12,938 bases of DNA from Chloroflexota bacterium. GTDB lineage: Bacteria > Chloroflexota > Anaerolineae > Fen-1058. Numbering within the stretch: position 1 is the stretch's first letter; every line of letters starts with the position of its first letter. A program made the translations under genes and the position numbers. The notes under the pieces were generated by a model. That model saw only the letters and a list, made by a program, of their open reading frames with translations. It was not told where the DNA came from and searched no databases. The stretch lies in NCBI GenBank assembly GCA_016219235.1, contig JACRBO010000605.1, positions 1 through 12,938 on the forward strand. Reading direction: 5' to 3'. Positions 77 to 9,963 of the stretch are shown piece by piece.

Positions 77-145
77 GCCACAAAAGAACACAAGGATCAC
101 AAAAATGGCGAGAGTTCTTTAGCGTTCTTTGCGTTCCTTTGTGGC
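77..145. repeat. Mirrored 9-10 nt array 3' of trpA
   Basis: Loose units of the type CACAAAAGAA / CACAAGGAT (79-108) meet units of opposite polarity such as GTTCTTTGC / GTTCCTTTG (112-145). The outer ends, 77-91 and 131-145, are complementary at 13 of 15 positions, so leftward RNA could form a stem-loop after the trpA stop. Neither side has the U-tract of a normal intrinsic terminator. Confidence 0.75.
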
Positions 146-167
146 AAATCGATCGCCGGATAATCGA

Positions 168-983
168 TCAGCGCATCGCCGACTTCAACGCGCGCACGAA
201 CTGCGCCGCAGCCTGCGCTTTATCCTCCGCCCGATCGACGATCTGCACCAGGCGCGATCCCACGATTACGCCGTCAGCCAGACGACTCACATCAGCGGCC
301 TGCTCCGGCGTCGATACCCCAAACCCGATCGCGATCGGCGTCGTGGTGGCGTGCCGTACTCGATCGACAAATGTGCCCAAATTGTCGGCCAATTTCGATC
401 GAGTGCCGGTGACGCCCGTCAACGATACCAGATAGATAAATCCCCGCGCTTTAGCGGCGACGAGTTTCAAACGTTCGTCCGTCGACGTAGGGGCGAGAAA
501 ATAAATCAATCCCAAGCCCCGATCGGCGCACAACCGATCGAGGTCGTCCGCTTCTTCGGGCGGCAAATCGGGCACGATGAAGCCGTCGACACCGGCCACG
601 GCTGCATCATTGACAAAGCGCTCCAGCCCATACGCCAGCATCGGATTGAAGTAGCCCATCAGCAGAAACGGCTGCTTGACGCCGCGTGCTCGTAACTCGG
701 CGATCATCGCCAGCGCCTTCGCCACGGTGATGCCCTGCTCCAGCGCGATCTGCGTCGCGTGTTGAATTACCGGCCCGTCCGCCAACGGATCAGAGAATGA
801 CAGACCCAATTCAAACGCATCCGCCCCGGCCTCGCTCATCGCGACGATCACATCCAACGATGTTGCCGCATCAGGAAAACCCAACGGGAAATACGGCATC
901 AACGCCGCGTGGCTGTTACCGAACAGATTGCTGATACGCGCCAGTGATTGCTGATTGTAGATTTCTGATTGTTGATTACTCAT
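168..983 (-). CDS. trpA: Tryptophan synthase alpha subunit
   Basis: TrpA cleaves indole-3-glycerol phosphate to indole and glyceraldehyde 3-phosphate in the cytoplasm and passes indole to TrpB. The protein is 271 residues, normal for the family. The catalytic segment ELGLSFSDPLADGP is visible, with the two acid residues at E58 and D69 (equivalent to E49 and D60 of the enteric enzyme). Other family blocks are FIVPDLPPEEAD, LVSLTGVTGTR and AIGFGVSTPEQ. I chose the ATG at 983; a GTG one codon upstream is also possible. No clear Shine-Dalgarno is seen, and the trpB stop lies only 6 nt upstream, so translational coupling is likely. The first 13 or so residues (MSNQQSEIYNQQS) are encoded by a 7-nt tandem array and precede the conserved core. 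Odd: Ser62 stands where most TrpA proteins have proline (P53). It is the last gene of the operon. Confidence 0.96.
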   Translation of the reverse strand: MSNQQSEIYNQQSLARISNLFGNSHAALMPYFPLGFPDAATSLDVIVAMSEAGADAFELGLSFSDPLADGPVIQHATQIALEQGITVAKALAMIAELRARGVKQPFLLMGYFNPMLAYGLERFVNDAAVAGVDGFIVPDLPPEEADDLDRLCADRGLGLIYFLAPTSTDERLKLVAAKARGFIYLVSLTGVTGTRSKLADNLGTFVDRVRHATTTPIAIGFGVSTPEQAADVSRLADGVIVGSRLVQIVDRAEDKAQAAAQFVRALKSAMR

Positions 984-1004
984 CACTCGTCACTCGTCAC
1001 GTAT
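942..1004. repeat. Heptanucleotide array across the trpB-trpA border
   Basis: Nine consecutive 7-nt units. On the plus strand five end in GAT (for example TTCTGAT, TGTTGAT), then TACTCAT, CACTCGT twice and CACGTAT. They encode the last residues and stop of trpB, the 6-nt spacer, the trpA start, and about 13 N-terminal residues of TrpA. Confidence 0.9.
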
Positions 1005-2207
1005 CGCCTTCATCACTGTATCCAAATCCTTATCCCCCCGCCCCGACAAATTCACCAGCAGAATCGCGTCCTTCTTCATCGTCGGTGCGCGCTTGATCGC
1101 CTCGGCGACCGCATGCGACGACTCCAGCGCCGGGATGATGCCCTCCAACTTGCACAACATTGAAAACGCATTGAGCGCTTCATCGTCAGTCGCAGACGTG
1201 TATTGGGCGCGGCCCATATCGCGCAAATGGGCATGCTCCGGCCCAATGGCGGCATAATCTAAACCGGCCGAAATCGAATGCGTCTCCGCGATCTGCCCGT
1301 CGGCATCTTGCAGCACAAAGGTCTTCGTGCCATGCAGCACACCCAATCGCCCCACCGCGGGATCACCGAAACGCGCCGCGTGCTTGCCCGACGCAATGCC
1401 TTCGCCGCCCGCCTCCACGCCAATCAGTTCAACGGCTGCATCATCACGAAACGCGTGAAAGAGGCCGATCGAATTGGAGCCGCCGCCCACACACGCGACG
1501 CACTGATCGGGCAAGCGTTCCGTCATCTCCAGGATTTGCGCCCGCGCCTCACGTCCGATGATCGCCTGAAAATCGCGCACCATCGTCGGATACGGATGCG
1601 GCCCCAGCGCCGACCCTAACAAATAGTGCGTCGTGTTGACGTTCGTCACCCAATCACGGATCGCTTCGTTGATGGCATCCTTCAACGTGCGCGTGCCTGC
1701 ATCGACCGGCCGCACTTCTGCACCCAGCAGCTTCATGCGAAACACATTCGGCTGCTGGCGAGCCATATCGACCGTGCCCATGTACACCACACACTCCAAT
1801 CCCAACAACGCCGCCACCGTGGCCGAAGCCACACCATGCTGCCCCGCGCCCGTTTCAGCCACGACGCGCCGTTTGCCCATCAACTTCGCCAGCAGCGCCT
1901 GCCCCAACGCATTGTTGATTTTGTGCGCGCCCGAATGCGCCAGGTCTTCGCGCTTCAAATAGATCTGCGCGCCACCCAGGTGTTCGCTCAAGCGCCGCGC
2001 GTGGGTCAATGCCGTCGGTCGCCCCACATACGTGCGCAGCAAACGCTCGTATTCAGCCACAAACGCGGCATCGCCCATCGCCTCAACGTACGCCGCCTCA
2101 AGTTCGCCCAGCGCGGGCATCAACGTCTCTGGCACAAACTGCCCGCCGTAAATTCCGAATTTGTGATTTAAGATTTCTGATTTCTGATTTAGCACGCGAA
2201 CGCTCAT
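990..2207 (-). CDS. trpB: Tryptophan synthase beta subunit (TrpB1 type)
   Basis: This PLP enzyme condenses indole with serine to give tryptophan, normally as the alpha2beta2 complex with TrpA. The 405-residue protein has the usual TrpB1 layout: [14 protein letters not shown] at the start of the core, [10 protein letters not shown] with the PLP lysine at K96, AETGAGQHG with the catalytic glutamate at E118, and a [10 protein letters not shown] phosphate-binding loop. It ends with the LSGRGDKD motif. It is encoded directly upstream of trpA, with 6 nt between them. The start ATG at 2207 lies in an 8-nt array, and residues 6-15 ([10 protein letters not shown]) come from a separate 7-nt array just before the core. 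No strong Shine-Dalgarno is visible, so coupling to trpF, whose stop is 15 nt upstream, is plausible. The last codons, RDE plus stop, belong to the array shared with trpA. Confidence 0.97.
2165..2192. repeat. Heptanucleotide array in the 5' end of trpB
   Basis: Four contiguous units GATTTNN (GATTTAA, GATTTCT twice, GATTTAG), with a degenerate unit beside them. In the trpB frame they encode residues 6-15, just before the conserved FGIYGG core. Confidence 0.88.
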
Positions 2208-2231
2208 CCGTTTATCCGTTGTTCATCCGTT
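2205..2231. repeat. Octanucleotide array across the trpF-trpB border
   Basis: CATCCGTT, TATCCGTT, a 3-nt interruption, and CATCCGTT again. On the coding strand it holds the trpF stop codon (2225-2223) and the trpB start codon (2207-2205). Confidence 0.82.
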
Positions 2232-2849
2232 GCTTCGTGCTCTGGTAACAAACAATTTCATTTTTGCCGCATCCTTCTTGCCCGGCGTACTCTCCACGCC
2301 CGACGCCACATCTACCCCCCACGGCTGCACTTGTCGAATCGCCTCCGCAACATTCTCCGGCGTGATGCCGCCCGCCAGCAAGATCGGGTGTTGTCGCGCG
2401 ATCTGTGCGGCCAGCGACCAATCGCCCACCTGTCCCGTGCCGCCGTACTCGCCCGTGCGATACGCATCGATCAGCAGCGCAGGCTCGTTCTTAACCGCAT
2501 ACGTTTTCGCCTGATTTTCAGCCTCTTCCAGCGATTGCGGCCTCAGCGCTTTGAAGCCAGTCACCTGCGTGAGCATCTCGATCGATTCATCGCCGTGGAG
2601 TTGGGCCAAGTCGAGATCGACTCTGCGCAAGATCGATTGTATGTCAAGCAGCGGTGAATTGACGAAAACCCCAATCAACTGCGGTTTGCTCACACCCGAT
2701 CGGATCTTCTCGACGATCGAGCGCGCCACTTCGGGTTCAACATATCTGACGCTCTGCCGGTAAAAATTGAACCCCAGCAAATCCGCGCCCGCCTCAATCG
2801 CCGCCCGCGCATCATCCAGATTCGTTATCCCGCAAATCTTCACCTTCAC
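2223..2849 (-). CDS. trpF: Phosphoribosylanthranilate isomerase
   Basis: TrpF performs the Amadori rearrangement of N-(5'-phosphoribosyl)anthranilate to CdRP, the step before TrpC. The protein is 208 residues, normal for a stand-alone TrpF, with the opening KICGITNLDDA (catalytic cysteine at C6), GFNFYRQSVRYV, AQLHGDES, LLIDA with the catalytic aspartate, AGGITPENV and the closing DVASGVES. The start is a GTG (MKVKICGIT, the usual family N-terminus). It lies inside an 8-nt tandem array that also contains the trpC stop codon; the array's AGGG about 7 nt upstream may act as ribosome binding site. The last codons (SNG plus TGA) lie in another 8-nt array running into trpB. TrpF is not fused to TrpC here. 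Confidence 0.95.
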   Translation of the reverse strand: MKVKICGITNLDDARAAIEAGADLLGFNFYRQSVRYVEPEVARSIVEKIRSGVSKPQLIGVFVNSPLLDIQSILRRVDLDLAQLHGDESIEMLTQVTGFKALRPQSLEEAENQAKTYAVKNEPALLIDAYRTGEYGGTGQVGDWSLAAQIARQHPILLAGGITPENVAEAIRQVQPWGVDVASGVESTPGKKDAAKMKLFVTRARSNG

Positions 2850-2889
2850 CTCTTCACCCTGTCACCTTGTCACCCCTTCATCTTGTCAC
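2842..2889. repeat. Octanucleotide array across the trpC-trpF border
   Basis: Six exact-length 8-nt units without interruption. On the coding strand they have the form GTGACAAG or GTGAAGAG, with one ATGAAGGG. They provide the last trpC residues and its TGA stop, the 28-nt spacer, and the GTG start and first codons of trpF. Confidence 0.92.
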
Positions 2890-3654
2890 GAGTTCCCGCA
2901 CCTTCGCCCTCACATCCGTCGCTGTCACCAGCGCCTCGCCGACCAGCATTGCATCGACGCCCATGAGTGCCAGTTCCTCCACATCCGCCGCCGAATGAAT
3001 GCCGCTCTCCGCCACGACGATCACGTTGCCCGGAATCCGCACGCGCAGTTTCGCCGTCGTCTGAAAATCCACGCTGAAATCGCGCAGGTTGCGGTTGTTC
3101 ACGCCAACTAACTGTGGGCCAACTCGAAACGCTCGCTCCAGTTCCTTCAGGTCGTGTACTTCGATCATCGCCGCCAGCCGCAGCGCGCACGCCAGTTGAT
3201 AGAACGCTTTCAGCCGCGCATCGTCGAGCGCCGCCACGATCAACAGGATCGCATCCGCGCCAGCCGCGCGTGCTTCATACAGTTGGTACTCGTCGACGAG
3301 GAAGTCTTTGCGCAACGCAGGCAGCAGCGAGATCGATCGGGCCGCCACCAGATCATCGAGCGAACCTTGAAAAAAGCGTTCATCCGTCACCACTGACAAA
3401 GCCGCCGCACCGTTGTCATCGTAGGTCTGCGCGAGCTGCTGGACATCGTAAGCGGCGCGCAGCAAGCCCCTGGACGGCGACGCTTTCTTGCATTCGGCGA
3501 TCAGCGCCGGGCGAGGTGCGTCTCGCAATGCGCCGATAAAGTCGCGCGGCGGCTCTTGCAATTCGGCCTGGGCGCGCAGCCGCGCCAGCGGAACTTGTTC
3601 TTTACGAATCGCAACTTCTTCAACTTTGTGAGCGAGAATTTGATCGAGAATCAT
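2878..3654 (-). CDS. trpC: Indole-3-glycerol phosphate synthase
   Basis: TrpC closes the indole ring, converting CdRP to indole-3-glycerol phosphate with loss of CO2. The 258-residue (beta/alpha)8 protein shows the full active site: AECKKASPS (E54, K56), LRKDF (K116), IEVHD (E165), NNRNL (N187) and AESGI (E216, S217). I start it at the ATG beginning MILDQILAHK, the usual N-terminus. The frame is open further upstream to a TTG, but that part is only translated 7-nt array. There is no obvious Shine-Dalgarno, and 54 nt separate it from the trpD stop, most of them an array that could form a hairpin. The last residues (VTR) and the stop are encoded by an 8-nt array that runs into trpF. Confidence 0.96.
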   Translation of the reverse strand: MILDQILAHKVEEVAIRKEQVPLARLRAQAELQEPPRDFIGALRDAPRPALIAECKKASPSRGLLRAAYDVQQLAQTYDDNGAAALSVVTDERFFQGSLDDLVAARSISLLPALRKDFLVDEYQLYEARAAGADAILLIVAALDDARLKAFYQLACALRLAAMIEVHDLKELERAFRVGPQLVGVNNRNLRDFSVDFQTTAKLRVRIPGNVIVVAESGIHSAADVEELALMGVDAMLVGEALVTATDVRAKVRELVTR

Positions 3655-3660
3655 GTTGAC

Positions 3661-3716
3661 CGTGTTACGTGGTGCGTAATGCGTGATACACGGACCACGC
3701 AATTCGCATCACGCGC
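3661..3716. repeat. Mirrored heptanucleotide array between trpD and trpC
   Basis: Eight contiguous 7-nt units: four of the form CGTNNNN followed by four of opposite polarity (mostly CACGNNN). Segments 3669-3685 and 3696-3712 are complementary at 14 of 17 positions. The trpD stop codon (3711-3709) lies in one arm. Confidence 0.9.
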
Positions 3717-4716
3717 TAAAGTTAATCAACGCATCGAGCTTTGCCAACGCCGCACCAGATTCAAGCGAGGCTGCGGCTAACTCAAGCCCTTGCCGCAAAT
3801 CGCCGGTTTCCGCGCCAAGCGCCGCCGCCGCATTGAGCAGCACCACACTCTTGCGCGCGCCGTTGACTGAACCACCCAACACCTCGCGCAAAATCCGCGC
3901 ATTTTCCTCGGCGGTGCCGCCGCGCAGTTCAGCCAGGTCGCCGCGCGGCAAACCTAGCGTTTCGGGATCGAGCGTGGTCGTTGTAACCTTGCCAGCCTTC
4001 AAGTGACTCAGCCGATTCGGCCCGGCAGTATTCAGTTCATCGACGCCGCCGTAGCCGTGCACCACAAAGGCCGCACGCGAACCAAGTTCGCCCAGCACTT
4101 TTGCCAGTGGCTCGGTCAATTCCGGATCGAACACACCGATGATCTGCACGTCTGCCCCGGCCGGATTCGTCAACGGGCCAAGCACGTTGAAGATCGTCCG
4201 CTGCCCGATCTCTTTGCGCGGCCCGACGGCATGCTTCATAGCTGGATGAAACTTCGGCGCAAACAAGAACCCGATGCCCACCTCGTCGATCGCTTTGCCC
4301 ACCTGATCCGGCGTCAAATCGAGGTTGACGCCCAATGCGGCCAGCACATCGGCGCTGCCGCATTGTGACGATGCGGCGCGATTGCCGTGCTTCGCCACTT
4401 TGCGCCCCGCCCCCGCAATCACAAACGCCGCCGCCGTGCTGATGTTGAACGTATGCTTGCCGTCGCCGCCGGTGCCCGCCGTGTCGTACAGGCCCGCTCG
4501 TTCACGCACCGGTACCGGCACCACATTGGCCCGCATCGAGCGGGCCGAGCCGGTGATCTCGTCGACCGTCTCGCCCTTCATCCGCAACGCGATCAGGTAC
4601 GCGCCAATCTGCGCGGGCGTCGCTTCACCGGCCATGATGTCGTTCATCGCCGCTTCGGCTTCCGGTTGCGTCAAATTCTCGCGGCGAATCACTTTGGCAA
4701 TCGCGTCTTTAATCAT
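3709..4716 (-). CDS. trpD: Anthranilate phosphoribosyltransferase
   Basis: TrpD transfers phosphoribose from PRPP to anthranilate. The 335-residue protein matches the stand-alone family length. It shows the PRPP-binding loop DTAGTGGDG followed by HTFNIST, then KHGNRAASSQCGSADVL, FAPKFHPAM (anthranilate site) and FNVLGPLTNPA. I chose the ATG giving MIKDAIAKV because a strong GGGGAGG lies about 6 nt upstream; an in-frame ATG five codons earlier would place that Shine-Dalgarno inside the gene. The protein is not fused to TrpG, unlike the enterobacterial TrpGD. The stop codon lies in the mirrored 7-nt array that separates it from trpC. Confidence 0.96.
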   Translation of the reverse strand: MIKDAIAKVIRRENLTQPEAEAAMNDIMAGEATPAQIGAYLIALRMKGETVDEITGSARSMRANVVPVPVRERAGLYDTAGTGGDGKHTFNISTAAAFVIAGAGRKVAKHGNRAASSQCGSADVLAALGVNLDLTPDQVGKAIDEVGIGFLFAPKFHPAMKHAVGPRKEIGQRTIFNVLGPLTNPAGADVQIIGVFDPELTEPLAKVLGELGSRAAFVVHGYGGVDELNTAGPNRLSHLKAGKVTTTTLDPETLGLPRGDLAELRGGTAEENARILREVLGGSVNGARKSVVLLNAAAALGAETGDLRQGLELAAASLESGAALAKLDALINFSA

Positions 4717-4737
4717 GATGTGCCTCCCCATGTCTTG

Positions 4738-4777
4738 GCGCGTATTGCGTGTTTTTCACGAAACACGCACCACGCGC
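4738..4777. repeat. Mirrored heptanucleotide array and hairpin between trpG and trpD
   Basis: Units CGTATTG and CGTGTTT meet CACGAAA, CACGCAC and CACGCGC. The dyad pairs 4738-4743 with 4772-4777 (6 bp) and 4746-4754 with 4761-4769 (9 bp), with a 2x2 internal loop and a 6-nt terminal loop. It lies in the 70-nt spacer, upstream of the trpD Shine-Dalgarno. Confidence 0.88.
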
Positions 4778-4786
4778 TACAGGCTG

Positions 4787-5353
4787 TTAGTTCTTGATAG
4801 ACAGGAAATTCTTCAACAACTGCTTCCCGTGCTTCGTCAAAATCGATTCGGGATGGAACTGCACGCCGAAGGTGGGATGCTCTTTGTGTTTCAACCCCAT
4901 CACGATGCCATCGCTCGTAAACGCGGTGACTTCCAGACAATCTGGCACAGGTTCGTCCACCATCAGCGAGTGGTAGCGCGTGGCTTCGAAGGGGCTGGGC
5001 AAGCCGTCGAAAATTCCCTTGCCCTGATGGTAAATCGGCGACGTCTTGCCGTGCATCAATTTGGGCGCGCGCTTCACTACACCGCCATACACCGCGCCGA
5101 GGCACTGATGGCCGAGACACACGCCCAACACCGGGATTTTGCCCGTGAAATAGCGAATGGCTTCATTCGAAATGCCGCCGTCGTTCGGGTCGCCGGGACC
5201 GGGGGAAATAACAAGGTGAGTGGGTGACAGGGTAACAAGCTGATCAAGTGTGATTTGATCGTTTCTAAACACGCGAATATCCGCGCCCAATTCGCCGAGA
5301 TATTGCACCAAGTTGTAGGTGAAAGAATCGTAGTTGTCGATTACGGCGATCAT
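4787..5353 (-). CDS. trpG: Anthranilate synthase glutamine amidotransferase component
   Basis: TrpG hydrolyses glutamine and delivers ammonia to TrpE for anthranilate synthesis. The 188-residue class I amidotransferase begins [15 protein letters not shown], has the oxyanion segment SPGPGDP, the nucleophile in GVCLGHQ (C79), and the other triad members in QFHPES (H167, E169). I start at the ATG because GGGAG lies 8 nt upstream. The frame extends upstream only to a TTG that would put this Shine-Dalgarno inside the gene. Residues 39-49 ([11 protein letters not shown]) are encoded by four 8-nt repeat units, yet the protein keeps family length and a family-like sequence there. A similar enzyme (PabA) can serve folate synthesis; the operon context makes a Trp role most likely, and a shared role cannot be excluded. 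Confidence 0.95.
5208..5239. repeat. Octanucleotide array inside trpG
   Basis: Four contiguous 8-nt units on the plus strand: ATAACAAG, GTGAGTGG, GTGACAGG and GTAACAAG. They belong to the same family as the trpC-trpF array but in opposite orientation to transcription. They encode TrpG residues 39-49 without changing the protein length. Confidence 0.8.
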
Positions 5354-5381
5354 CTTTGTTACTCCCAATACATTATCGGCA

Positions 5382-5437
5382 CGTGGTGCGTGGTGCGTGG
5401 TGCGTGTTCCGTTACGCAGTACGCATTACGCAGTGCG
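5382..5437. repeat. Mirrored heptanucleotide array between trpE and trpG
   Basis: Eight 7-nt units: CGTGGTG three times and CGTGTTC, then CGTTACG, CAGTACG, CATTACG and CAGTGCG of opposite polarity. TGCGT segments of the first half can pair with ACGCA segments of the second. The trpE stop (5428-5426) lies in the array. Confidence 0.9.
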
Positions 5438-6952
5438 CTCGGCTTGCTCTATCGCTACCGCCAACGCCTTCGCTTTATTCAACGTCTCTTGGTATTCACT
5501 CGCCGGATCGGAGTCCGCGACAATGCCCGCGCCCGCTTGAATGCTGACACAGTCGCCGTGCATCAACAGCGTGCGGATGGCAATGCAAGTGTCCATCGCG
5601 CCGTCATACGAGAAATACCCGACTGCTCCCGCATACAGGCCGCGCTTCAACCCTTCGAGGTCGCGAATGATCTCCATCGCGCGCACTTTCGGCGCGCCGC
5701 TGACCGTGCCCGCCGGGAATGTCGCGCGTAGCAGATCGAAAGCCGTCAGGCCATCGCGTACTTTGCCTTCCACTTGCGAGACGATGTGCATCACGTGCGA
5801 ATAGCGTTCCACGACGAATAGATCGGGGACACTCACCGTACCGTACTCGGCCACGCGGCCGATGTCGTTGCGGCCCAGATCGATCAGCATCAAATGCTCG
5901 GCGCGCTCTTTCGGATCGGCTAACAGTTCTTGCTCCAACGCCATGTCCTCGGTGGGAGTGGAACCGCGTCGCCGCGTACCCGCGATCGGGCGCACCGTGG
6001 CCGTGCGGCCTTCCAATCGCACGAGCATTTCCGGCGAGGCGCCGATCACGTGATAAGGTTGATCGTTCACCGTGCCAAAGTCAAAGAAAAACATGTACGG
6101 CGACGGGTTTAGTCGCCGCAAGGCCCGATAGATATCGAACGGCTGAGCGGACGTGCGCCGCGACAGCCGCTGCGACAACACGACTTGAAAGATGTCGCCC
6201 GCCGCGATGTGCTCTTTGGCCTGACGAACGATCTCTTCAAATTGAGGCTGGGTAAAGTTAGTAGTCAGAGGCTCAGCGGATGGTGCGTGATGCGTGGTGC
6301 GTGTTGGAAGAGGCGCGTTCAGTCGCTCCGCGATCCGATCGAGCCGCGTGACAGCCTCCGCGTAGGCCGCATACGGATCGCCGCTGAGGTGCGCATTCGC
6401 AATGATCAACAATCGGCCGCGCGCGTGATCGAAAGCGACGAGCGTGTCGGCCAGCATGAAGATCGATTCGGGCAGTGCGGTAGCCGGTGCTTCACCCTCG
6501 ACATCCAACTTCGGTTCGAAGAAGCGGATGACATCGTAACCGAGATAGCCCACCAGACCGCCGACGAAGCGCGGCAGACCCGGCAACATCACCGGCTTGA
6601 AGCGCGCCATCTCGGCTTGCAGCACGTGCAATGGATCGTTGCCCGTGGGTAGATCAAACGTCGAGGCGCTGCCATTCACACGCCGTGTCACCGCGCGGCC
6701 CTTGAACGTCAACAGCGCGCTCGGCTCCACACCGATGAATGAGTAACGCCCGATCTGTTCACCACCTTCCACGCTCTCTAACAAGAACGATGCACCGTGC
6801 CCCGCCAACTTGAGATACACCGACACCGGCGTATCCAGATCGGCCGGTAATTCCCGATAGATCGGCACGAGGTTGCCCTGCGCCGACAGGGGCAGCAGTT
6901 CGTCAATGGACGGATGAATATCGGTGCGTTGGTTAATCGCTTCAGCCAGCAT
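5426..6952 (-). CDS. trpE: Anthranilate synthase component I
   Basis: TrpE converts chorismate and ammonia to anthranilate, the committed step, with TrpG supplying ammonia. The 508-residue protein has the N-terminal regulatory domain with FLLESVE (residues 56-62, the LLES tryptophan-binding motif), which suggests retained feedback inhibition. The chorismate-binding domain follows: QVVLSQRL, PIAGTRRRG, LMLIDLGRNDIGRV, TFPAGTVSGAPK and GAGIVADSDP. I chose the ATG giving MLAEAINQ because GGGAG lies 5 nt upstream. The frame stays open for 18 more codons, but those are translated 7-nt array. Around residues 216-226 ([10 protein letters not shown]), in the linker between domains, the coding sequence contains four 7-nt units identical in type to those between genes. 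The stop TAA lies in the trpE-trpG array. Confidence 0.96.
   Translation of the reverse strand: MLAEAINQRTDIHPSIDELLPLSAQGNLVPIYRELPADLDTPVSVYLKLAGHGASFLLESVEGGEQIGRYSFIGVEPSALLTFKGRAVTRRVNGSASTFDLPTGNDPLHVLQAEMARFKPVMLPGLPRFVGGLVGYLGYDVIRFFEPKLDVEGEAPATALPESIFMLADTLVAFDHARGRLLIIANAHLSGDPYAAYAEAVTRLDRIAERLNAPLPTRTTHHAPSAEPLTTNFTQPQFEEIVRQAKEHIAAGDIFQVVLSQRLSRRTSAQPFDIYRALRRLNPSPYMFFFDFGTVNDQPYHVIGASPEMLVRLEGRTATVRPIAGTRRRGSTPTEDMALEQELLADPKERAEHLMLIDLGRNDIGRVAEYGTVSVPDLFVVERYSHVMHIVSQVEGKVRDGLTAFDLLRATFPAGTVSGAPKVRAMEIIRDLEGLKRGLYAGAVGYFSYDGAMDTCIAIRTLLMHGDCVSIQAGAGIVADSDPASEYQETLNKAKALAVAIEQAERTA
6279..6306. repeat. In-frame heptanucleotide array inside trpE
   Basis: Units GATGGTG, CGTGATG, CGTGGTG and CGTGTTG, the same family as the intercistronic arrays. 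Encodes the [10 protein letters not shown] stretch in the linker between the TrpE domains. Confidence 0.85.
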
Positions 6953-6970
6953 GTCTTCTCCCAGTCTAGT

Positions 6971-7028
6971 GAGTGATGAGTAACGAGTAAAACGTTCCAT
7001 ACTCATTACTCATCACTCGTTACTCGTC
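6971..7028. repeat. Mirrored heptanucleotide array between trpB2 and trpE
   Basis: Units GAGTGAT, GAGTAAC and GAGTAAA are followed, after 9 nt, by ACTCATT, ACTCATC, ACTCGTT and ACTCGTC. Segments 6971-6988 and 7001-7018 are complementary at 17 of 18 positions around a 12-nt loop, a long potential hairpin between the trpB2 stop and the trpE Shine-Dalgarno. Confidence 0.92.
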
Positions 7029-8403
7029 ATGCATTTACTTTCGGCAGCCCCGCAATCGCTTCTTCAATCGCTTCGCGCGGATACTCATAGTCTTCCAGTT
7101 CGCCCGCGAAGTATTTCTGATAACCGGCCATGTCGAAGTGACCGTGCCCGCTGAGGTTGAACAAGATTACTTTCTTCTCACCCGCCGCTTTAGCCTGCAA
7201 TGCTTCGTCGATGGCGACGCGGATCGCGTGCGCGGATTCCGGCGCGGGAATGATGCCCTCGGTGCGCGCGAACTGCACCGCCGCCGCAAACACCGGATTC
7301 TGCGCCACGGCCACCGCTTCAATGACGCCTTCGTCGTACAACTTGCACACGATCGGCGCCATGGCGTGATAGCGCAGACCGCCCGCGTGAATGGGCGCGG
7401 GAATGAAGGCCGAGCCGAGCGTGTACATCTTGACCAGCGGCGTCATCTGCGCGGTATCGCCGAAGTCATAGGTGTAAATGCCTTTCGTCAACGACGGCGC
7501 GGCGGTCGGTTCCACGGCGACGATGCGCGTGGTTCGGCCGTCCTTCAACTTGCCGCGCACAAACGGCAGCGCGATGCCGCCAAAGTTCGACCCACCACCC
7601 ACACAGCCGATCACGATGTCGGGATACGCGCCGACGAGTTCCATCTGCTTCAGGGCTTCCTCGCCGATGACCGTTTGATGCAGCAGGACGTGATTGAACA
7701 CCGAGCCGATCGAGTATTTGGTGTCCGGCGTCGTGACGGTATCTTCCAGCGCTTCACTGATCGCGATGCCCAGCGAGCCGCTGTGATTGGGATCTTGCGC
7801 CAGAAACTTGCGGCCAGCATTTGTATCCTTGGATGGCGAAGCAACGATCGACGCGCCATACGATTCCATCAGCATGCGGCGATAGGGTTTCTGCTGATAG
7901 GAGATATTGACCATGTACACTTTCGCTTCAAGGCCAAAGAACGCCGACGCGAAAGCCACCGCGCTACCCCACTGCCCCGCGCCGGTTTCCGTCGCGATCC
8001 GCTTCGTGCCGGCCAGCTTGTTGTAATATGCCTGCGGCACAGCCGTGTTAGGCTTGTGCGATCCGACCGGCGACACACCCTCGTATTTGAAATAAATCTG
8101 CGCCGGAGTATCAAGGGCCTTCTCCAAACGCCGCGCCCGCATCAACGGCGTGGGCCGCCACAACCGATAGATTTCGCGCACCTCTTCGGGGATGTCGATG
8201 AACCGCGCCGCGTACGGGCCGACGGATGCTTCCTGCATGACGATCTCCATCGGGAACAGCGGCGCTAAGGCATCCGGCCCGATCGGTAGGCCGGTGCCCG
8301 GATTGATTACCGGCGGCAGCGGCGTCGCAAAATCGGCTTGCACGTTGTACCACGCGGTCGGCATTTCACTTTCGTCGAGTAGGAACTTCACCTGGTCAGA
8401 CAT
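7027..8403 (-). CDS. trpB2: TrpB2-type tryptophan synthase beta chain
   Basis: This 458-residue PLP enzyme belongs to the TrpB2 branch, which is longer than TrpB1 and diverges in the parts that contact TrpA. TrpB2 proteins convert indole plus serine to tryptophan, often independently of TrpA, and are thought to salvage indole. Branch marks are the extended N-terminus, [25 protein letters not shown] with the PLP lysine at K117, [12 protein letters not shown] with glutamate E139, [10 protein letters not shown], and [11 protein letters not shown] near the end. The start ATG has AAGGAGA just upstream. It lies between trpS and trpE, so the operon encodes two beta chains. A 7-nt array precedes the gene, and another begins at its stop. 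Whether it acts with TrpA or alone cannot be read from the sequence. Confidence 0.95.
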
Positions 8404-8438
8404 GGCTCTCCTTGCAAGAATGATTTAGTGTTTGAAAT

Positions 8439-8473
8439 CGTGTCGCGTATTTCGTGATGCGTGTTGCGTAACT
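8439..8473. repeat. Heptanucleotide array between trpS and trpB2
   Basis: Five contiguous units CGTGTCG, CGTATTT, CGTGATG, CGTGTTG and CGTAACT, all of one polarity. It occupies much of the 84-nt spacer and leaves both stop codon and Shine-Dalgarno free. Confidence 0.9.
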
Positions 8474-8487
8474 ACCGCACTAATTCG

Positions 8488-9546
8488 CTACCGCAACCGC
8501 CTCAGCCCCATCGCCTCTCGCGCCATCGCTACGGTCTCTTCCGAGATGGGCCGAATCTTGGCCGCACCCGCCGCGATGATCTCGTCGATCAGGCCGGGCT
8601 TGGCCTCGTAGTGCGCGCGGCGCTCGCGGATCGGCGCGAGGAAGTTTTGCAGCGCGATATTCAGCTTCTTCTTCACTTCCACATCGCCCACCTTGCCAGT
8701 GCGATAGCGATCCTTCAAGTCTTCGACCTCAGCCGTATTCGGATTGAACGCATCGTGATACTGGAAGACGGGATTGCCATCGGGGTTGCCGGGAATGTCC
8801 GCCCGGATGCGCGTGGGATCGGTGTACATGCTCATCACCTTTTGGCGCACGGTCGCTTCATCATCCGACAGCATGATCGCGTTGCCCAGCGACTTGGACA
8901 TCTTCGCTTTGTTGTCCGTGCCCACCAGCGTCGGCACGTCGCCGATCAGCGTATCGGGCTCGGGAAAAACCTCGCTGCCGTACAGGTAGTTGAAGCGCCG
9001 GGCAATCTCGCGGGTGACTTCCAGATGCGACGCCTGATCTTTGCCGACCGGCACCAGGTTCGCGCGCACGTGTAAAATATCGGAAGCCTGCAGCACCGGA
9101 TAGCCCAGCAAGCCATACGATGGCTGCTCGATGTGCTCGGCGTCCATGACTTCTTTCAGCGTCGGCACGCGCTCCAGGCGCGGCACGGTCGCGAGCATCG
9201 AGAACAACAGATGCAGTTCGCACACGCTGGGCACATCCGATTGCACGTAGATCGTGGTCTTGTCGGGATCGATGCCCACCGATAGATAATCGAGCACGAG
9301 TTGGCGCGTGTAGCCGACCGTGGCCGCAACGTGTTCCTTATCGACCGTGCGGGTCAGTGCGTGATAATCGGCCGCGAGCAAAAACACCTCATACTCATCC
9401 TGCAGCCGCACCCGATTGGCCAGTGTGCCGACATAGTGCCCCAGATGCAGCGGGCCGGTGGGCCGATCGCCGGTGAGAATGCGCCCCTTTTTGATTGCAG
9501 ATTGCGGACTGCTTACTGCTGATTGAATTTCAACGGCTGCTTCCAT
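8488..9546 (-). CDS. trpS: Tryptophanyl-tRNA synthetase
   Basis: TrpS charges tRNA-Trp with tryptophan. The 352-residue class I synthetase has the HIGH-type motif in PTGPLHLGH (residues 29-37) and KMSKS at 215-219, with SYGLLGYPVLQASDIL and VPVGKDQ between them. These are typical of the bacterial enzyme. The ATG at 9546 has GGAGG 6 nt upstream. The core starts about residue 22 (RILTGDRPTG). Residues 8-19 (IQSAVSSPQSAIK region) are written in five 7-nt repeat units and look like an added N-terminal tail. It is the first gene after the T-box leader, and no promoter is visible between it and trpB2. Its expression should rise with the whole trp operon when tRNA-Trp is uncharged. Confidence 0.96.
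   Translation of the reverse strand: MEAAVEIQSAVSSPQSAIKKGRILTGDRPTGPLHLGHYVGTLANRVRLQDEYEVFLLAADYHALTRTVDKEHVAATVGYTRQLVLDYLSVGIDPDKTTIYVQSDVPSVCELHLLFSMLATVPRLERVPTLKEVMDAEHIEQPSYGLLGYPVLQASDILHVRANLVPVGKDQASHLEVTREIARRFNYLYGSEVFPEPDTLIGDVPTLVGTDNKAKMSKSLGNAIMLSDDEATVRQKVMSMYTDPTRIRADIPGNPDGNPVFQYHDAFNPNTAEVEDLKDRYRTGKVGDVEVKKKLNIALQNFLAPIRERRAHYEAKPGLIDEIIAAGAAKIRPISEETVAMAREAMGLRRLR
9491..9525. repeat. Heptanucleotide array in the 5' end of trpS
   Basis: Five contiguous units TTGATTG, CAGATTG, CGGACTG, CTTACTG and CTGATTG. In frame they encode TrpS residues 8-19, ahead of the catalytic core. Confidence 0.85.
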
Positions 9547-9564
9547 TGCGTGCCTCCATAATTC

Positions 9565-9602
9565 CTTTGCCGCATTTGCTTTGCCGCTTTGCGGCTTTGC
9601 GT
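9565..9602. repeat. Octanucleotide array between the T-box terminator and trpS
   Basis: Units CTTTGCCG, CTTTGCCG, CTTTGCGG and CTTTGCGT with a 6-nt partial unit. It fills the space between the terminator U-tract and the trpS Shine-Dalgarno. Confidence 0.82.
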
Positions 9603-9608
9603 GAGATC

Positions 9609-9656
9609 AAAAAACGCCCGTCCCGACTCGCATCACTGCGCTGTCTGGGACGAGCG
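9609..9656 (-). terminator. T-box-controlled intrinsic terminator
   Basis: On the minus strand CGCTCGTCCC (9656-9647) pairs with GGGACGGGCG (9624-9615) over 10 base pairs with one G-U, extended after a bulged A by GAC/GTC. Six U residues follow (9614-9609). The 5' arm is the same segment used as the 3' arm of the antiterminator, so the two folds exclude each other. Confidence 0.93.
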
Positions 9657-9963
9657 CTCGATACGCCCGTGGTGCCACCCACTTTAAGCCGCTCATGCTA
9701 TAAATAAAAACACCTGTCTGTGATGCGACAGGTGCCTGAGCCAGCCTCACTTTGCGAGTACGGTCGGCGCTGTGCGCCTTATAACGATACTCTCTGCCCT
9801 GATAACGGTGGCGATTCCGGCTTGAGCTACTCCCGATCGGTTTTGCCCGCGCAACTCGGAGGGCCATTCCACGTCTGCAACTGGATCGGACTTTCAGCGG
9901 CTACCGTCCGACTCTCTGACCAATCACGGGTGACGTGTACTCGTCCTCGTCAGCGTCTTTGTG
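9609..9963 (-). promoter_or_regulatory. Tryptophan T-box leader (tRNA-Trp-sensing riboswitch)
   Basis: Read on the minus strand, this leader has T-box parts in order. Stem I carries AGAGAG (9912-9917) and an apical TCGGAC/GTCCGA hairpin, then GAATGGCCCTCCGAG. The specifier UGG at 9864-9866 is the Trp codon. Stem II contains GGCGC-ACA-GCGCC closed by GAGTA/TACTC. Stem III is CACCTGTC/GACAGGTG (9711-9734). The T-box sequence GGGTGGCACCACGGG (9666-9680) gives the 7-nt bulge UGGCACC. The bulge base C would pair with G73 of bacterial tRNA-Trp. The antiterminator pairs 9678-9680 with 9647-9649 and 9664-9670 with 9650-9656. The 5' limit is estimated from the promoter. T-boxes of this kind are established transcription attenuators; uncharged tRNA-Trp would allow read-through into trpS and the trp genes. 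Confidence 0.95.

What the first reader, a model, noticed from the sequence alone, without database searches (positions are those of the whole stretch)
77..9602. Every junction of the nine-gene trp operon carries a short tandem array
All nine borders (T-box/trpS, trpS/trpB2, trpB2/trpE, trpE/trpG, trpG/trpD, trpD/trpC, trpC/trpF, trpF/trpB, trpB/trpA) and the region 3' of trpA hold 3-9 units of a 7, 8 or about 9-10 nt repeat. At least five unrelated unit types occur. The peptidase/DUF952 overlap and the non-coding stretch beside it have none. Cyanobacterial STRR heptamers are a known parallel, but I know of no description of such regular placement at gene borders within one operon. It suggests a repeat-generating process that targets gaps between genes, or a role in mRNA processing or ribosome spacing.
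Basis: partly seen in the sequence, partly recalled or inferred. Interest (0 to 1): 0.78.

Follow-up and report, generated by a model that had tools for sequence, protein, structure and literature searches.

The report
Heptamer hairpin spacers inside operons
In a little-known class of bacteria, gaps between genes of one operon are often filled with a short, mostly 7-letter word repeated in a row and often mirrored into a hairpin; the word differs between species while place and layout recur, which hints at an undescribed kind of gene spacer or of DNA growth.

Summary
The feature is larger than described. (1) Four of the ten stretches also fold as significant hairpins whose arms are the unit in opposite directions. 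(2) Arrays also lie in coding sequence, even with a swapped word at the same place in relatives. (3) It is neither trp- nor strain-specific: in Anaerolineae, gaps of 61-150 bp inside trp, his, nuo and atp operons hold arrays in 87 of 178 cases, against 66/349 other codirectional, 12/80 convergent and 4/52 divergent gaps; E. coli K-12 had 0 of 81 gaps. (4) Array hairpins have the purine-rich arm first, 150 to 17. (5) There is no sign of selection for pairing in the sense RNA, and compensation is weak. Best reading: fast-turnover, locally grown operon spacers (7-bp duplication plus inverted duplication), probably also used as cistron separators. A new variant of known heptamer repeats; nine literature searches found no description of the operon-internal placement or the arm polarity.

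The parts
9643..9962 (-). T-box leader
   Evidence: Rfam RF00230, 84 bits, E 2e-18, below the gathering score of 93
9578..9601 (-). 8-nt array between T-box and trpS
   Evidence: p 0.006; no hairpin (z +1.1)
9493..9525 (-). 7-nt array translated at the trpS N-terminus (QSAVSSPQSAIKKG)
   Evidence: p 0.004; compared with relatives
8439..8469 (-). trpS/trpB2 array, class NNACGCA, single arm
   Evidence: p 0.006; no hairpin (z +0.3)
6970..7027 (-). trpB2/trpE heptad hairpin; 19-bp stem, arms 7000-7018 and 6971-6989, class GAGTRAY
   Evidence: p 0.002; z -5.6
6281..6306 (-). 7-nt array in frame inside trpE (interdomain linker TRTTHHAPS)
   Evidence: p 0.002; L001 and L002 carry another word at the same place
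5382..5438 (-). trpE/trpG double-arm array, class TGCGTRR then YYACGCA
   Evidence: p 0.002; stem forms but z only -1.3
4738..4785 (-). trpG/trpD heptad hairpin, arms 4761-4777 and 4738-4754
   Evidence: p 0.002; z -3.2
3661..3714 (-). trpD/trpC heptad hairpin, arms 3694-3714 and 3667-3687
   Evidence: p 0.002; z -2.2
2844..2874 (-). trpC/trpF 8-nt array (GGTGACAA type), single arm
   Evidence: p 0.006; no hairpin
2210..2232 (-). trpF/trpB array (CAACGGATGAA type, 11 nt, about 2 copies)
   Evidence: p 0.004
2159..2190 (-). 7-nt array translated at the trpB N-terminus ([12 protein letters not shown])
   Evidence: (p 0.002)
945..1000 (-). trpB/trpA array: GTGACGA units over the trpB stop codon, running into an AATCAGA-type array translated as MSNQQSEIYNQQS of trpA
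   Evidence: (p 0.002)
77..145 (-). hairpin with about 10-nt units 3' of trpA
   Evidence: z -4.1; array p 0.014 against shuffles, 0.058 against coding windows

Best explanation
These are the local form of a class-wide feature of Anaerolineae: spacers inside operons that have been grown by repeated duplication of a short unit (7 bp in most cases, less often 8 or 9) and, in many cases, by an inverted duplication of the array, giving a hairpin whose purine-rich arm comes first. Step 1 (shown): arrays are placed between the stop codon of one cistron and the start of the next, preferentially inside operons. Step 2 (shown by comparison): place and layout recur across genomes while the word is often replaced, so the sequence itself is not what is kept. 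Step 3 (inferred): they arise mostly in situ by slippage-type duplication followed by fold-back or template-switch copying, with only limited spread of a word within a genome. Step 4 (inferred, less sure): they persist because they serve as interchangeable cistron separators that set distance from the stop codon and a free ribosome-binding site, rather than through fine-tuned RNA pairing.
For: Gaps of 61-150 bp: arrays in operon-internal gaps 87/178 (trp 49/97, his 14/28, nuo 21/48, atp 3/5) against other codirectional 66/349 (p 2e-12), convergent 12/80 (p 1e-7), divergent 4/52 (p 1.5e-8) (window and L001-L004 left out). Distinct from ordinary 3'-end hairpins: among hairpins, 71/112 in operons and 10/45 in convergent gaps have arrays. 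Period 7 in 191 of 266 stronger arrays. Array starts overlapping or abutting the stop codon in 130 of 294, within 6 nt in 55 more. Spacers are added length: trpD/trpC median gap 69 with array and -4 without, trpC/trpF 41 and -4, trpB/trpA 71.5 and 29. A ribosome-binding-like motif lies between hairpin and start in 125 of 173 array hairpins, 151 of 234 others. Word replacement: trpE/trpG is TGCGT-class in the window but GAGTGA-class in L001-L003; at trpS/trpG, 19 arrays (15 hairpins) fall into three main word classes, two of period 7 and one of period 8, under similar flanks; inside the trpE linker the window has ACGCAYC-type units where L001 has ACTCGTC units, in frame and at the same length. 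In-situ growth: 134 distinct canonical heptamers among 191 arrays; word sharing within a genome 108/848 pairs against 747/17297 between genomes and 2.8% for permuted units. Polarity: purine arm first in 150, second in 17 of 173 array hairpins.
Against: Sense RNA pairing is not favoured: G-U 144 against A-C 173 mismatches, sense fold more stable in 83 and less in 83; in the TrpE loci alone A-C even exceeds G-U, 94 to 48. Compensation between close orthologues is weak: 34 broken, 15 to G-U, 3 of 4 double changes compensated with 1.8 doubles expected. About 40% of array gaps have no hairpin (115 of 288). Frequency varies widely between genomes: random codirectional gaps of 61-150 bp 15/29 (G002), 5/57 (G003), 9/67 (G006), 14/60 (G009). 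The hairpin depletion in divergent gaps is significant in the TrpE loci (1/34 against 172/456, p 7e-6) but not in the random G002+G003 sample (6/28 against 79/240, p 0.28). Several junctions keep the same word class between window and relatives (trpB2/trpE, trpG/trpD, trpF/trpB). Growth by slippage and fold-back was not observed; it is inferred.
Confidence: 0.5

Rival explanations
1. Neutral by-product: a high rate of 7-bp slippage plus fold-back duplication in these genomes fills any DNA that is under little constraint, and operon spacers are simply the freest DNA; no function.
For: High turnover of words, array-bearing arms that match only slightly better in register than one unit out of register (0.840 against 0.798, 101 hairpins), no RNA-level signature, arrays also at tolerant places inside genes. 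Heptamers are described as the commonest longer simple repeat in many bacteria, with polymerase slippage proposed (introduction of PMC4679880).
Against: Convergent gaps carry no promoters and should tolerate arrays at least as well, yet have them in 12/80 against 87/178. The strict purine-first polarity is not explained by a positional composition trend: gaps with neither feature are flat, and single arrays show no position preference (p 0.44).
Confidence: 0.3
2. Functional RNA hairpins selected for structure in the polycistronic mRNA (3'-end protection, processing sites or attenuation).
For: Strong folds at four of ten stretches of the window; hairpins common after genes, 172 of 456 codirectional plus convergent gaps against 1 of 34 divergent in the TrpE loci; placed between stop codon and start.
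Against: No G-U excess, no sense/antisense difference, weak compensation, no T-rich tract behind the hairpins (T 0.27-0.35 in 8 nt), many arrays without partner arm.
Confidence: 0.12
3. Copies of a mobile palindromic element of the REP/MITE kind.
For: Words recur within a genome about three times more often than between genomes; one word occurs many times in some genomes and never in others (GGATGAA triplets: 95 in G015, 68 in G009, 0 in 4 of 10; reversed-pattern control 0 in all 10).
Against: Only 3 same-genome pairs of array hairpins are near full-length copies at >=80% (only some loci were mapped to a genome there, so this is a lower bound); 134 distinct units among 191 heptamer arrays; the unit, not a whole element, is what is shared.
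Confidence: 0.08

Closest known systems
Short tandemly repeated repetitive (STRR) heptamers of cyanobacteria (recalled; a search listing only)
   Same: 7-nt tandem units between genes
   Different: Here many unrelated words per genome, paired into purine-first hairpins, concentrated inside operons; no sequence comparison with STRR was made
TAACTGA repeats of marine Beggiatoaceae and others (PMC4679880; abstract, introduction and passages seen)
   Same: Heptamer direct repeats near starts, overlapping upstream stop codons, some inside ribosomal protein operons; role in translation suggested
   Different: One fixed word, 169 direct-repeat sets and one inverted set; here the word is free and inverted arms are common
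(GATAGRA)n satellites of Chloroflexus aurantiacus (PMC6749651; passages seen)
   Same: Heptamer arrays in the same phylum
   Different: 22 satellites from a single heptamer; no operon placement or hairpin described in the passages seen
REP/REPIN elements (PMC3116915, PMC2817692, PMC3733652; search listings only)
   Same: Many extragenic palindromes per genome
   Different: REPs are defined by a shared sequence and, for many, a linked transposase (recalled); here arms are tandem arrays of variable words and copies are few
Intrinsic terminators
   Same: Hairpin after the stop codon
   Different: No T-rich tract, placed inside operons, tandem arms; convergent gaps, where terminators belong, have hairpins (45/80) but rarely arrays (12/80)

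Membership tests
Intergenic heptamer simple-sequence repeats (STRR-like, broad sense) | Tandem copies of a unit of about 7 nt, above chance | tested here: met
   period 7 in 191 of 266 stronger arrays
Intergenic heptamer simple-sequence repeats (STRR-like, broad sense) | Lies mainly outside coding sequence | tested here: met
   G002: 19 arrays of period 7-11 in 13.8 kb non-coding against 6 in 131 kb coding; G003: 21 in 103 kb against 30 in 415 kb
Cyanobacterial STRR proper | The specific cyanobacterial heptamers | not tested
   No cyanobacterial sequence was compared
TAACTGA repeats | Unit TAACTGA | tested here: not met
   Window units are TGCGTRR, GAGTRAY, GGTGACA, AATCAGA, CGGAT types
REP/REPIN mobile palindromes | Whole palindromes shared as copies within a genome | tested here: not met
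   3 same-genome near full-length pairs among 173 array hairpins, a lower bound
REP/REPIN mobile palindromes | Linked REP-associated transposase | not tested
   No search for it was made
Intrinsic terminators | T-rich tract after the stem | tested here: not met
   T fraction 0.27-0.35 in the 8 nt after codirectional hairpins
Conserved structured RNA | Compensatory base changes and G-U preference | tested here: inconclusive
   3 of 4 double changes compensated, 1.8 doubles expected, 34 broken; G-U 144 against A-C 173

The most novel reading that the evidence does not exclude
Anaerolineae possess a cistron-punctuation system that is defined by architecture and not by sequence: a dedicated or strongly biased process writes an arbitrary 7-nt word in tandem after the stop codon of operon-internal genes and then its inverted copy, always purine arm first, and can rewrite the word (and its period) at the same junction, even in frame inside a protein linker, without loss of layout.
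Probability: 0.3. Interest if true: 0.82.

Novelty: new variant of a known kind. Interest (0 to 1): 0.6.

Why it matters
Bacterial operon spacers are usually thought of as short and optimised. Here whole operons of biosynthesis and respiration are spaced by rapidly changing tandem hairpins in a class of abundant, mostly uncultured bacteria. That gives a natural system for asking how spacers are born, why seven base pairs is the preferred step, why the purine arm is first, and whether layout without sequence can be selected. The extension of proteins by translated arrays (NQQS leaders of TrpS, TrpB and TrpA) also shows one way in which new N-termini arise.

Tried and rejected
All-frame stop cassette: purine-rich units contain TGA/TAA/TAG, but the count in arrays (457) equals that in column-permuted units (453). 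Positional composition as cause of the polarity: rejected, flat profile in 535 gaps with neither feature, and single arrays show no R/Y position preference (p 0.44). Sense-RNA selection through G-U preference: not supported. A first count of A-C mismatches was doubled by a script error; replace it. Arms as exact ordered copies: only slightly better in register than one unit off. Trp-specificity: first suggested (49/93 against 17/97 at 61-150 bp, 12/30 against 2/52 at 151-300; not significant at 21-60, 20/62 against 12/66, p 0.10), then rejected by the his, nuo and atp controls. Whole-element mobility: little support. An early gene finder undercalled genes (56% coding in G003) and was replaced by a hexamer model (on). 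The reversed-pattern control says nothing because that pattern reads the same backwards. In one search the L003 TrpE row was empty (extraction failed).

Limits: gene borders are ab initio, so starts are uncertain; p<=0.01 means 0 of 100 shuffles and at most 1 of 200; a few gaps may be counted twice because two gene models gave slightly different borders (trp 97 where one search had 93); some 'other codirectional' gaps are surely inside unlabelled operons. Most genomes are metagenome bins (G003 and G004 are 7.7 and 8.0 Mb and may be mixed). Word families are inflated where the consensus mixes both arms.
Full report
What is there. The window is from an unnamed Anaerolineae contig: its nearest held relatives by TrpE are Thermoflexales bins L001 (92% identical), L002 (88%), a fen Anaerolineae bin L003 (80%) and L004 (78%). 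A T-box (below Rfam's gathering score) precedes trpS-trpB2-trpE-trpG-trpD-trpC-trpF-trpB-trpA on the minus strand. All nine borders and the stretch 3' of trpA show a 7-11 nt periodicity with p between 0.002 and 0.014 against dinucleotide shuffles (uncorrected); the weakest are trpF/trpB (about two 11-nt copies) and the stretch 3' of trpA (p 0.058 against coding windows). A stricter automatic test passed 6 or 7 of the window's 9 codirectional gaps.

Anatomy. The units are not one family: TGCGTRR/YYACGCA, GAGTRAY, GGTGACA (8 nt), CGGAT types (9-11 nt), AATCAGA, TTTGCGG (8 nt). Several arrays come as two arms with the same unit in opposite directions. trpB2/trpE is a 19-bp stem (z -5.6); 3' of trpA, trpG/trpD and trpD/trpC also fold better than shuffles; trpE/trpG forms such a stem without significance; the other five stretches do not. 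Arrays are not confined to gaps: the N-termini of TrpS, TrpB and TrpA are translated AATCAGA-type arrays (NQQS peptides, recognisable in relatives too), and the TrpE interdomain linker holds an in-frame array. At that linker L001 has ACTCGTC units instead of the window's ACGCA-type units, at the same peptide length; L002 has a degraded version and L004 none.

Is it general? In 80 Chloroflexota TrpE loci, arrays occur in 126 of 417 codirectional gaps of 21-300 bp, 5 of 39 convergent and 1 of 34 divergent. In random stretches the rate in codirectional gaps of 61-150 bp differs by genome: 15/29 in G002, 5/57 in G003, 9/67 in G006, 14/60 in G009. E. coli K-12 had 0 in 81 gaps of 100 kb (only 12 of them codirectional of 61-150 bp). 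Coding windows pass at 0.7 to 3.3% (10/766, 8/244, 10/746, 4/591, and 3/180 in E. coli).

Is trp special? Trp-trp gaps of 61-150 bp had arrays in 49 of 93 against 17 of 97 other codirectional gaps of the same loci (window and L001-L004 left out). To separate trp from operons in general I fetched his, nuo and atp operons from the genomes of 24 of these loci where hits allowed (18, 20 and 18 stretches). Gaps of 21-300 bp: trp 35/75, his 26/49, nuo 32/92, atp 7/15, other 24/179. So the property belongs to operon-internal spacers. The pooled table at 61-150 bp is 87/178 inside operons, 66/349 other codirectional, 12/80 convergent, 4/52 divergent. Convergent gaps have hairpins as often (45/80 against 112/178) but rarely arrays, which sets array hairpins apart from ordinary gene-end hairpins.

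Sequence is replaced, layout recurs. Between the window and L001-L003 the word class changes at trpE/trpG, at trpC/trpF (periods 8, 7, 7, 10) and at trpD/trpC (TGCGT class in window and L001, GAGTGA class in L002 and L003), and is kept at trpB2/trpE, trpG/trpD and trpF/trpB; trpB/trpA is the same in window and L001 and different in L003 (by eye and by unit distance, the latter blurred where both arms enter the consensus). At trpS/trpG in other genomes 19 of 42 loci have arrays, 15 of them hairpins, mostly in three word classes: GTCAAAG (7 nt), GACCATA (7 nt) and GTTTGAAA (8 nt), with similar last codons of trpS and similar starts of trpG. Orthologous hairpins can also be conserved (L055, L056 and L076 are 90-95% identical), so turnover is fast but not instantaneous. 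Where arrays are missing the same junctions are often overlaps: median gap -4 for trpD/trpC and trpC/trpF, against 69 and 41 with arrays.

How it may arise and act. Units are diverse (134 distinct among 191 heptamer arrays) with a threefold excess of sharing within genomes, and near-full copies within a genome are few: this fits local growth with limited spread better than a copy-and-paste element. The purine-rich arm comes first in 150 of 173 array hairpins and second in 17; the bias is weaker in hairpins without arrays (131 to 72) and holds in convergent gaps (12 to 1). Because a palindrome reads the same on both strands, this polarity cannot come from the direction of transcription. My inference is that inverted copying happens mainly from the purine-rich nascent strand. 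RNA-level tests do not favour pairing in the sense transcript: G-U 144 against A-C 173, sense and antisense equally stable (83 and 83), weak compensation in 22 orthologous pairs. In the TrpE loci alone A-C exceeds G-U (94 to 48), which is opposite to what selection on the sense RNA would give; pooling weakens it (p 0.12).

Judgement. Shown: reality of the arrays, operon-internal enrichment, polarity, word replacement. Inferred: growth by slippage and inverted duplication. Less sure: use as a cistron separator. The main rival is neutral filling of free DNA; its difficulty is the low rate in convergent gaps and the polarity.

Literature. Nine searches of an open-access library gave no paper on operon-internal tandem hairpins in Chloroflexota among the titles and abstract starts listed; most subscription papers are not in it. 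Read in passages: PMC6749651 (Chloroflexus aurantiacus, GATAGRA heptamers) and PMC4060949; abstract, introduction and passages: PMC4679880 (TAACTGA). STRR of cyanobacteria, REP definitions and terminator features are from memory.

Noticed in passing
window 9493-9525, 2159-2190, 945-977; L002, L003, L154: The N-termini of TrpS, TrpB and TrpA in these relatives carry related peptides (ISNQQSA, NQQS) that are translated 7-nt arrays: three units of seven give one heptapeptide.
   Followed up: partly
G009 and G015 (genomes of L037 and L012): One word, GGATGAA, is very frequent in two of ten genomes (68 and 95 triplet matches, overlapping ones counted) and absent from four; arrays of it also end contigs of G015 (C12, C94, C140), so long arrays may break assemblies.
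   Followed up: no
window 9643-9962: The tryptophan T-box scores below Rfam's gathering threshold (84 against 93) and would be missed by default annotation.
   Followed up: no
L026 gaps of trp and neighbours: Another kind of spacer, pyrimidine arm first (CCCCTCTCCCCCTTCCCC ... GGGGAAGGGGGAGAGGGG), recurs in this locus.
   Followed up: no
L006, L026, L148, L209 and others: A 9-nt class (CACGAAGGA, CACAGAGCA types) forms near-perfect hairpins and may be a separate family.
   Followed up: no
TrpE loci, array hairpins: Mismatches between arms are A-C rather than G-U in the sense strand (94 to 48), the reverse of the usual RNA signature; not significant when pooled.
   Followed up: partly
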